Positions 32,051 to 33,553 of a DNA stretch of 64,000 nt are shown piece by piece (positions within the stretch are counted from its first letter, which is position 1; every line of letters begins with the position of its first letter). Source of the stretch: Sphingobium phenoxybenzoativorans (GTDB taxonomy: Bacteria > Pseudomonadota > Alphaproteobacteria > Sphingomonadales > Sphingomonadaceae); the NCBI RefSeq assembly GCF_001757355.1, contig NZ_MINO01000014.1, forward strand, positions 1-64,000, given 5' to 3'. The position numbers were made by a program, and so were the translations under genes. The notes beneath the pieces were generated by a model. That model was not told the origin of the DNA, searched no databases, and saw only the letters and a list, made by a program, of their open reading frames with translations.

Positions 32051-32126
32051 TCGTGGCGTAGTCGATACCGAATGGACGATTGGGATGGGGAGCGGTGGAT
32101 ACATCCATTGCCTCGCTTCCTCTGCT

Positions 32127-32216
32127 CGTCATTCTCGCGAAAGCGGGAACCCATCTCTCCCCATGCGCTTGCCGTGCCTAAGGCATGGTGGGTCCCCGCT
32201 TTCGCGGGGATGACGG
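32127..32216. repeat. dispersed palindromic repeat upstream of nagZ
   Basis: Begins CGTCATTCTCGCGAAAGCGG and ends CCCCGCTTTCGCGGGGATGACG. An inner hairpin GCCTAAGGC lies near 32176-32184. It is the third copy of the family seen at 9421 and 10994, here between the SPOR gene and nagZ. Confidence 0.6.
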
Positions 32217-32340
32217 ATTAATGGATGACGGGAATTGGCGCTTCGGTCATCTACACCCCCGCATTCCTGTCCTACACCCGCCATGTCATGCTCTATTCCC
32301 GCGCATGAAATGGCCTTCTCGATCCACTGACCAGTGTGGC

Positions 32341-32417
32341 CCAGCCGCGACCCGCATGAGACTCATCTGCGACCTGGATGAGACCAACATGCGACTTTTG
32401 TGCGACCTACATGCGAC
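32341..32417. repeat. seven 11-bp phased direct repeats ahead of nagZ
   Basis: Seven consecutive 11-base units end in GAC: CCAGCCGCGAC, CCGCATGAGAC, TCATCTGCGAC, CTGGATGAGAC, CAACATGCGAC, TTTTGTGCGAC and CTACATGCGAC. The consensus is nnnnATGCGAC (minus strand GTCGCATnnnn). The GAC is invariant in all seven and the phase is one helical turn. They lie 128 bases before the nagZ ATG. This has the form of an operator array bound by a multimeric regulator on one DNA face. The regulator is not known. Confidence 0.65.
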
Positions 32418-32545
32418 GTTCCGGCCAAAACCGCTCACAACCCGCAACTTCCGCAACTTCGGTGGGACAGCTTTTGCTGGGATGATGCCGGGAATCGCGA
32501 TAACAGGGGGCTATTGCAGATGACATCAGCCAGGCGACCCCATCC
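32418..32545. other. remaining nagZ leader region
   Basis: No gene is supported. The stretch holds a tandem nine-base repeat, CGCAACTTC CGCAACTTC (about 32442-32460). A further pair of CTACACCC sequences 24 bases apart lies just upstream of the 11-bp array (about 32250-32280). A frame through this region (32185-32523) is an artefact of the repeats and has no ribosome site. Confidence 0.4.
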
Positions 32546-33553
32546 ATGAAACCCGTCATTTTCGGCCTTGCGGGCGAAACCCTGACAAGCGACGAGCGCG
32601 CTTTCTTCCGGGAGGCGGAGCCTGCGGGCTATATCCTGTTCCGCCGCAACGTCGCGGACAAGGCGCAGTTGCGGGCGCTGACCGATGACCTGCGGGCGCT
32701 GCACGGCCGGGACGATTTGCTGATCATGATCGATCAGGAAGGCGGCCGGGTGGCGCGGATGCCGCCGCCGGTCTGGCCGGCCTTTCCTCCGGGGGCGGTG
32801 TTCGACGCGCTCTATGATGTCGCCCCCGCCAGCGCCATTGTGGCCGCCCGGACCAATGCGCAGGCGATCGCCGTCACCCTGCGTGAATGCGGCATCAATG
32901 TGGATGCCTTGCCCCTGCTGGACGTGCGTCAGCCGGGCTCAAGCGACATTATGGGCGACCGGACCCTGGGCGCGGAGCCGCTGCGCGTGGCGGCGCTGGG
33001 CCGGGCGGTGCTGGACGGGCTTAAGCAGGGCGGCGTGGTCGGCATCGTCAAGCATATGCCGGGGCATGGCCGGGCGATGGTCGACAGCCATCATGAACTG
33101 CCGCGTGTCGATGCCAGCGAGGCGGAGCTGGAAACCGATATCGCGCCGTTCAGGGCGCTTAACCGGGCGCCGATGGGGATGACCGCGCATATCGTCTACA
33201 CCGCATGGGACGCCGAGCGCCCGGCGAGCCTGTCGCCGGTGGTGATCGCGAACATCATCCGCGGCCGTATCGGCTTTGACGGCCTGCTGATGTCCGACGA
33301 TCTCGATATGAAGGCGCTGAAAGGCGACATCCCGTCGCTGGCGGCTGGCGTGGTCGCCGCGGGATGCGACATCGCGCTCAATTGCTGGGGCCGGATGGAG
33401 GAGATGGTGGGCATCGCCGACGCCCTGCCGGACATCACGGCCGAGGCCCGGCGGCGCCTTGACCGGGCGATGGCTACGGTTGGCGATGGCGGGGAGGCGG
33501 AACCTCTGGGCGATCTGCTGGCCCGGCGCGACGAATTGCTGGCCTTGGCGTGA
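32546..33553 (+). CDS. nagZ: beta-N-acetylhexosaminidase (glycoside hydrolase family 3)
   Basis: 335 residues. IMIDQEGGRVARM, the family motif KHMPGHGRAMVDSHHELP with the histidine/aspartate dyad, and LLMSDDLDMKAL with the catalytic Asp are all present. NagZ removes GlcNAc from recycled anhydromuropeptides in the cytoplasm and can thereby feed the AmpR beta-lactamase signal. It starts the nagZ-scpA-scpB-tatABC block. The leader carries the 11-bp repeat array. Confidence 0.93.
   Translation: MKPVIFGLAGETLTSDERAFFREAEPAGYILFRRNVADKAQLRALTDDLRALHGRDDLLIMIDQEGGRVARMPPPVWPAFPPGAVFDALYDVAPASAIVAARTNAQAIAVTLRECGINVDALPLLDVRQPGSSDIMGDRTLGAEPLRVAALGRAVLDGLKQGGVVGIVKHMPGHGRAMVDSHHELPRVDASEAELETDIAPFRALNRAPMGMTAHIVYTAWDAERPASLSPVVIANIIRGRIGFDGLLMSDDLDMKALKGDIPSLAAGVVAAGCDIALNCWGRMEEMVGIADALPDITAEARRRLDRAMATVGDGGEAEPLGDLLARRDELLALA

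What the first reader, a model, noticed from the sequence alone, without database searches (positions are those of the whole stretch)
32341..32417. Seven 11-bp helically phased repeats ahead of nagZ-scpAB-tatABC
Seven back-to-back units all end in GAC, with consensus nnnnATGCGAC. One-turn spacing puts all sites on one DNA face, as in iterons or oligomer operators. I know of no described regulator with this site. A neighbouring CGCAACTTC tandem and CTACACCC pair make this a densely structured control region for a block that includes chromosome condensation and protein export.
Basis: seen in the sequence. Interest (0 to 1): 0.7.

Follow-up and report, generated by a model that had tools for sequence, protein, structure and literature searches.

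The report
Scattered 11-bp DNA-site arrays with HTH gene
The repeat near nagZ is not that gene's private switch: it is one of about sixteen scattered copies of a multi-site DNA array whose parent copy sits right after the gene for a small helix-turn-helix protein, an arrangement seen in many species of this bacterium's genus and probably the protein's binding platform.

Summary
The array is real: seven exact 11-bp steps at 32341-32417. Its unit is best written TGVGAC+N5 (V = A/C/G). It is not a nagZ operator. The own genome holds at least 16 such arrays with one shared 3' tail (CCCGCAACTTCCGCAACTT); 15 of the 16 also have a promoter-like box (CTGTCCTAC[A/G]) upstream. Of 94 genus genomes only this one and a Sphingobium MAG have exact 4-unit TGMGAC arrays. 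In both, one "parent" copy reads box, small HTH gene, array, tail; the other own copies, including the window's, lack the HTH gene. HTH loci of the genus show the wider pattern: in 29 analysed (best match per genome) the stretch from HTH stop to tail is 11-bp periodic (lag 11 best in 28; mean z 4.7, against 0.3-1.0 in control stretches). Relatives use a sister core (TGTCGC/TGTGAC). The hexamer core is conserved even at synonymous sites, and adjacent units are no more alike than units of different arrays, which argues against fresh slippage and against a conserved peptide. Best reading: a helically phased multi-site array for the adjacent terminase-small-subunit-like HTH protein, dispersed in this lineage. 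Binding is inferred, not shown; function (pac-, centromere- or regulator-like) is open.

The parts
32267..32276 (+). CTGTCCTACA box, promoter-like (-35-type) element shared with the HTH parent gene; in the family a start codon follows 37/38 nt on (42 in one copy)
   Evidence: promoter role inferred from spacing and position
32292..32297 (+). putative -10 (TCTATT), 15 nt after the box
   Evidence: sequence only; inferred
32305..32523 (+). 72-codon ORF from the ATG at box+38, stop-free through the array; no amino-acid constraint seen in the family
32341..32417 (+).
32440..32461 (+). conserved tail ACCCGCAACTTCCGCAACTTCG; 27 copies in the own genome at <=2 mismatches, 16 of them with an array upstream
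32126..32217 (.). REP-type inverted repeat (CCCGCGAAAGCGGG type), a separate common dispersed repeat, not part of the array module
32546..33553 (+). nagZ-type GH3 gene downstream; neighbour, not shown to be a target

Best explanation
The window array is an HTH-less copy of a composite module: promoter-like box, start codon, [HTH gene], 11-bp phased array, tail. The array most likely is a multi-site DNA platform bound cooperatively, one HTH domain per helical turn, by the small helix-turn-helix protein encoded beside the parent array (own genome C89:4153-4467, 104 aa). In this lineage copies without the HTH body stand at about 15 other places, so one HTH protein could occupy some 16 arrays around the genome. 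Shown: dispersal, shared anatomy, parent loci in two species, genus-level HTH-array linkage, nucleotide-level constraint, strict spacing. Inferred: binding by that HTH protein, dsDNA as the target, the deletion-and-copying history, and every downstream function.
For: Dispersal: 15 arrays of 4-23 units plus a short 16th at C14:71.2 kb, all with the same tail in the same orientation. Parent loci: box, HTH gene, array, tail in own C89 and in G103 C36 (HTH 82-84% identical). Genus-level linkage: an HTH-family match in 81 of 94 genomes at E<=1e-8 (this includes larger, more distant HTH proteins); loci were given for the best match of 30 genomes, 29 analysed (one HTH frame broken): lag 11 best of lags 4-19 in 28 of 29, z>3 in 22 of 29, mean z 4.7, every other lag below 0.7. 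Controls from the same loci (upstream, after the tail, HTH coding): mean z at lag 11 0.31, 0.28, 1.02; z>3 in 0 of 29 each; lag 11 best of lags 6-16 in 2, 4 and 8 of 29. Larger or distant HTH relatives: z11>3 in 0 of 21, lag 11 best in 2 of 21. Relatives' units: 229 units in 27 loci, 196 of 202 steps exactly 11, core YGKSRC (TGTCGC, TGTGAC, TGGCGC), same orientation (the chain-finder favours 11). Own/G103, 21 copies: 257 of 262 hexamer distances are multiples of 11, and the last hexamer lies 29/30 or 40/41 nt from the tail match in all 21. Constraint: 307 units, 1.5-1.9 bits at positions 1, 2, 4, 5, 6, 0.1-0.8 elsewhere; adjacent units 0.379 alike vs 0.389 between arrays. In the phase where the third hexamer base ends a codon it is C 51, G 10, T 1, A 1, though C to T would be synonymous. 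HTH: 12 of 12 members match PHROG 4044 terminase small subunit, best 1e-8; two distant relatives of the HTH search lie next to a terminase large subunit (L322, L337).
Against: No binding data. The HTH assignment is weak: for member 1 Pfam gives only a sub-cut-off HTH_1 hit, Terminase_2 appears in 6 of 12 at best 0.0016, no credible PDB relative. At the parent loci the array lies 3' of the gene, not at its promoter, so simple autoregulation does not explain it. Units two and three apart are somewhat more alike (0.460, 0.448) than units of different arrays (0.389), so some block duplication has occurred. Twelve of 17 copies keep a stop-free frame from a start codon (2.5 expected), which a pure DNA-site model does not predict. 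z at lag 11 is below 3 in 7 of 29 loci. The 29 loci are the best match per genome, not all HTH copies. Units were collected with a core filter (at least 4 of 6 matches), which favours the core. At 11.0 bp per unit, sites on relaxed 10.5-bp DNA drift about 17 degrees per unit, so a 20-unit array is not strictly on one face.
Confidence: 0.6

Rival explanations
1. Neutral minisatellite: an 11-bp tandem repeat that grew by slippage inside a dispersed, decaying repeat and has no function.
Against: Variation is concentrated in position 3 and N5 while positions 1, 2, 4, 5, 6 are nearly fixed; adjacent units are no more alike than units of different arrays; 11-bp periodicity after HTH genes in 28 of 29 loci with a shifting core; an apparently orthologous pair of arrays keeps its unit order between two species (L197/L212, compared by eye).
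Confidence: 0.2
2. Operator of nagZ-scpAB-tatABC for an unknown regulator.
For: Position upstream of nagZ; helical phasing; transcription from the box would run towards nagZ.
Against: No exact 4-unit array in the 29 other same-genus genomes whose nagZ locus was fetched; at least 15 other copies elsewhere in the genome with the same tail.
Confidence: 0.05
3. Protein-coding 11-residue repeat (3 units = 33 bp = 11 codons, C-D-x-x-E-T-x-[VM]-R-x-x) made by each copy.
For: A stop-free frame in 16 of 18 arrays of 7 or more units (expected 5.1), and from a start codon in 12 of 17 (expected 2.5; the box-proximal ATG in 15 copies, the ATG overlapping the HTH stop in the two parents); at both parent loci that overlap is ATGA.
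Against: Position variability is much the same in all three codon phases; at the third hexamer base G (Trp if TGG) is commoner than the synonymous T; the frame of the tail relative to the array differs between copies; over the 29 HTH loci a second frame reaches the tail in 14, with no constant phase. The shuffle tests treat related arrays as independent and ignore block duplication, so significance is overstated.
Confidence: 0.07
4. RNA element: the copies are small transcripts from the box whose repeated UGVGAC motifs bind an RNA-binding protein, the tail being an end structure.
For: Promoter-like box with fixed spacing to the start codon; several array-less copies have an AAGTTGCGGG/CCCGCAACTT inverted repeat before the tail; the stop-free frame suggests transcription and translation.
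Against: Exact 11-nt spacing (257 of 262 distances are multiples of 11) is expected for dsDNA rather than for single-stranded motifs; no Rfam family in 14 loci scanned; the inverted repeat was not seen in the array copies except a remnant in L200 (by eye).
Confidence: 0.08

Closest known systems
Phage small terminase (TerS) and pac/packaging initiation sites
   Same: HTH protein of terminase-small-subunit type (PHROG 4044) encoded next to direct repeats; PMC4737164 (passages read) says the SPP1 pac site holds three sets of direct repeats, spans the promoters and start of the TerS gene, and that pac-targeting TerS proteins display HTH motifs in a ring.
   Different: No terminase large subunit among the neighbouring ORFs scanned at the parent loci; arrays of up to 23 units dispersed in a genome; oligomerisation and TerL-binding parts not identified in these roughly 95-115 aa proteins; SF6 TerS was reported to have little specificity for the repeats.
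ParR-parC centromeres of type II plasmid partition
   Same: Direct repeats of about one helical turn (R1: 11 bp) bound by ParR, with DNA wrapped around the protein (PMC9426499, passages read).
   Different: ParR is typically ribbon-helix-helix and parC lies upstream of parM; here an HTH protein, array downstream of its gene; no search for a parM-type gene was made.
OmpR/PhoB-type direct-repeat operators, e.g. CenR TGA-N8-TGA
   Same: Direct repeats about one turn apart bound by a regulator (PMC9275681, passages read).
   Different: A two-unit site near promoters, not up to 23 units; that paper reports no CenKR homologues found in Sphingomonadales.
RcGTA small terminase
   Same: Packaging protein of an alphaproteobacterial gene transfer agent; two distant relatives of the HTH family lie next to a terminase large subunit (L322, L337; Pfam Terminase_6N/6C).
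   Different: RcGTA gp1 was reported to lack the HTH domain, and no discrete GTA packaging sites were known (PMC6854486, passages read).
REP/MITE-like dispersed repeats
   Same: Copies without the gene of a parent locus, spread over the genome.
   Different: Transposase, terminal repeats and target duplications were not sought systematically; cargo is a phased array.

Membership tests
Phage TerS-pac system | HTH related to phage small terminases | tested here: met
   12 of 12 members match PHROG 4044, best E 1e-8; Pfam Terminase_2 only 6 of 12, best 0.0016
Phage TerS-pac system | Partner terminase large subunit encoded next to it | tested here: not met
   own parent locus: none of 5 neighbouring ORFs scanned (of 6 found by a crude ORF finder in 9.7 kb) is a terminase; G103: the one ORF scanned is a porin. 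Larger relatives L322 and L337 do have it.
Phage TerS-pac system | Ring oligomer and TerL-binding C-terminus | not testable with these tools
ParR-parC | Helically phased direct repeats of 10-11 bp | tested here: met
ParR-parC | Actin-like ATPase gene and RHH adaptor beside the repeats | tested here: inconclusive
   the adjacent protein matches HTH, not RHH, models; none of the few parent-locus neighbours scanned is ParM-like; no genome search for parM
nagZ-operon operator | Conserved ahead of nagZ in relatives | tested here: not met
Simple slippage minisatellite | Adjacent units most alike; variation even over the unit | tested here: not met
   (lags 2 and 3 are slightly raised)
Known Rfam RNA | Match to a covariance model | tested here: not met
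   14 loci with the tail scanned at E<=1: a tRNA and two sub-threshold hits of unrelated families

The most novel reading that the evidence does not exclude
A chromosomal, phage-derived site-recognition system: in Sphingobium an orphan family of small terminase-like HTH proteins keeps beside its own gene a helically phased array, with a core that evolves with the protein; in this lineage one such protein addresses about 16 dispersed arrays as pac-like or centromere-like wrapping sites, for example to steer gene-transfer-agent packaging or to organise the chromosome.
Probability: 0.15. Interest if true: 0.88.

Novelty: new variant of a known kind. Interest (0 to 1): 0.6.

Why it matters
It turns an apparent promoter curiosity into a testable protein-array pair: a small HTH gene and a strictly phased array behind it, in many species of one genus, with a natural change of core motif (TGTCGC to TGVGAC) between lineages. 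If the protein binds the array, it is a compact model for cooperative one-site-per-turn DNA recognition and for how terminase-like domains are reused in chromosomes. If GTA packaging were involved, it would bear on whether GTA packaging is truly random.

Tried and rejected
CenR/OmpR-type operator: considered at first because of the one-turn direct repeats; dropped when the copies turned out to be dispersed. Universal TGMGAC system: the genome-contig scan found 11-bp TGMGAC arrays in many phyla, but many are identical-unit minisatellites, none of 10,980 ORFs of 115 such loci matches the HTH model at E<=1 (repeated with a positive control, 6 of 6 known HTH loci found), and the Pseudomonadota sample shows only background; not pursued. 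Coding repeat: tested and mostly rejected; the form chose the open frame afterwards and is weaker. sRNA/Rfam: no family. HTH relatives in viral contigs and plasmids: none found. Mechanism of copying (target duplications, terminal repeats): not analysed. Gene neighbours of the copies came from a crude codon-score ORF finder that called some antisense frames, so no count of convergent sites is claimed. Paper searches were for background on terminases, GTAs and ParR. Recalled, from no call: general knowledge of iterons and of 10.5 bp per turn for relaxed DNA.

Full report
Observation. The seven 11-bp units are in the sequence exactly as described. The better unit definition is TGVGAC plus five variable bases; in that frame the window array runs from 32335 to 32422 with six perfect hexamers.

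It is a dispersed element. In the own genome (5.04 Mb, 202 contigs) the 3-unit pattern at <=3 mismatches hits 259 times against 11 reversed-pattern hits (only the first places are listed) and the 4-unit exact pattern 99 times against 0. I resolved 15 arrays plus a short 16th at C14:71.2 kb; further short or degenerate ones may exist. The 22-base tail at <=2 mismatches occurs 27 times in the own genome, 11 times in G103, twice in G062 and in 0 of the other 91 genus genomes. In an order sample it was found in 3 of 296 genomes: own, G364 of another genus (6 copies) and G356 (1 copy, apparently inside a gene); the six G364 copies show no array. Of the own 27 tails 16 have an array and 11 do not; all 27 were read.

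Shared left end. Of the 16 own array copies 13 have CTGTCCTACA upstream, two have CTGTCCTACG (L199, L200) and one (L203) has none within 420 nt. Over own and G103 copies with a box (17), an ATG lies 37 or 38 nt after it in 16 and 42 nt in one; L211 could not be judged because its contig ends about 115 nt upstream of the array. The spacing suggests a promoter with a leaderless start codon (inference). The box alone is not rare: 38 in the own genome against 22 for the reversed pattern, 24 against 11 in G103, 22 against 15 in G006, but 11 against 11 in G364 and fewer than the reversed pattern in G021 and G017; several lie in what looks like coding sequence (by eye).

Parent locus. At own C89 and at G103 C36 (G103 is the Sphingobium sp. 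nzgw534 MAG, inferred because three contigs agree in length and array) the box is followed by a 104/110-aa HTH gene, then an 18/13-unit array, then the tail. The other own copies with a box start with the same kind of promoter and often with ATGGAACA, as the HTH gene does, but go into the array within about 65-170 nt of the box. They look like HTH-deleted derivatives. Neighbours of the own parent locus are ordinary genes (FtsK, an Exo_endo_phos protein, GTP cyclohydrolase II, YkuD, HD/ACT).

Genus-level linkage. A model of four HTH proteins matches 81 of 94 genus genomes (larger, more distant HTH proteins included). I examined the 30 loci given, the best match of 30 genomes, own and G103 among them. 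One (L352) has a broken HTH frame and was dropped. In the other 29 the stretch from HTH stop to tail has its best lag at 11 in 28 (exception L370), with z above 3 in 22; no other lag averages above 0.7. Same-locus controls are nearly flat: mean z 0.31, 0.28 and 1.02, none above 3, though lag 11 is the best of lags 6-16 in 2, 4 and 8 of 29 (the 8 in HTH coding sequence). Of 22 larger or distant HTH loci given to the same test one was too short; 0 of 21 has z above 3. The tail of the 27 relatives is GTGTGAACTT or one of three variants (the motif list was made after seeing them). Their unit core is TGTCGC, TGTGAC, TGGCGC and the like, in the same orientation as TGVGAC.

What is constrained. Information is concentrated in positions 1, 2, 4, 5, 6 (units were accepted with at least 4 of 6 core matches, which favours the core somewhat). 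Adjacent units are not more alike than units of different arrays (0.379, 0.389); units two and three apart are (0.460, 0.448), so block duplication has played some part. The codon-phase test separates nucleotides from peptide: entropies are much the same in all three phases, and where the third hexamer base ends a codon it is C 51, G 10, T 1, A 1. Yet a stop-free frame from a start codon is kept in 12 of 17 copies against 2.5 expected by shuffling units (the box-proximal ATG in 15, the ATG overlapping the HTH stop in the two parents). That is unexplained; the copies are related, so its significance is overstated.

The HTH protein. 12 of 12 aligned members hit PHROG 4044 (terminase small subunit); Pfam gives weak generic HTH hits and Terminase_2 in 6 of 12; NCBIfam and PDB give nothing credible. 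Two distant relatives found by the HTH search, L322 in another genus and L337 in G006, lie next to a terminase large subunit. Own and G103 differ from the other ten aligned members in the recognition-helix region (GMT[SA]RSAH against GMS[RP][SAT]SAH), and these are the two genomes with TGVGAC arrays. This is one change, a hint and not a test.

Mechanism. HTH protein binding one site per turn along the array, with cooperative or ring-like oligomers, best fits strict 11-bp spacing, core conservation and adjacency. PMC4737164 describes TerS rings of HTH motifs and a pac site with direct repeats at the TerS gene, but also little specificity for the repeats (passages); PMC9426499 cites 11-bp repeats for R1 ParR (passages). 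These are analogies; membership in neither system is claimed.

Effect on nagZ. The element sits in a 495-bp gap that is 49-196 bp in the 20 relatives measured. It may alter nagZ expression by position, but nothing suggests it evolved for that.

Literature. Papers seen: passages of PMC9275681, PMC4737164, PMC6854486 and PMC9426499; of all others only search listings with abstract starts. Searches showed no description of such arrays in their listings; the library is partial.

Changes made on checking: counts for the box and start codon, the lag-2/3 similarity, best-lag counts of the controls, the contig end at L211, the two tails not read before, a positive control for the HTH scan and a family scan of parent-locus neighbours.

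Noticed in passing
L282, L294 (own), L308, L312, L315 (G103): A second element class behind the same CTGTCCTACA box, with a 3' block like CAATAAAATGTCGAGTTTGCGGGAAAAGAGGGAAG.
   Followed up: no
own L217, L230, L232, L280, L292; G103 L306, L309, L313: Array-less copies with an inverted repeat AAGTTGCGG(G)/CCCGCAACTT just before the tail; L292/L309 and L293/L313 look orthologous by eye.
   Followed up: partly
OY282365.1 (for example L107, L116, L181): A Dehalococcoidia chromosome with about 20 or more dispersed arrays of TGCGACACYTA and similar flanks.
   Followed up: partly
L093, L115 (Achromobacter): 11-bp TGAGAC arrays with variable N5; no similar HTH ORF in the 8-kb loci.
   Followed up: partly
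L304 (G006), L276 (own): A DUF6456 gene (Pfam) and a lysozyme-like gene (by eye) also start behind the CTGTCCTACA box.
   Followed up: no
window 32126-32217: REP-type inverted repeat, abundant in relatives.
   Followed up: no
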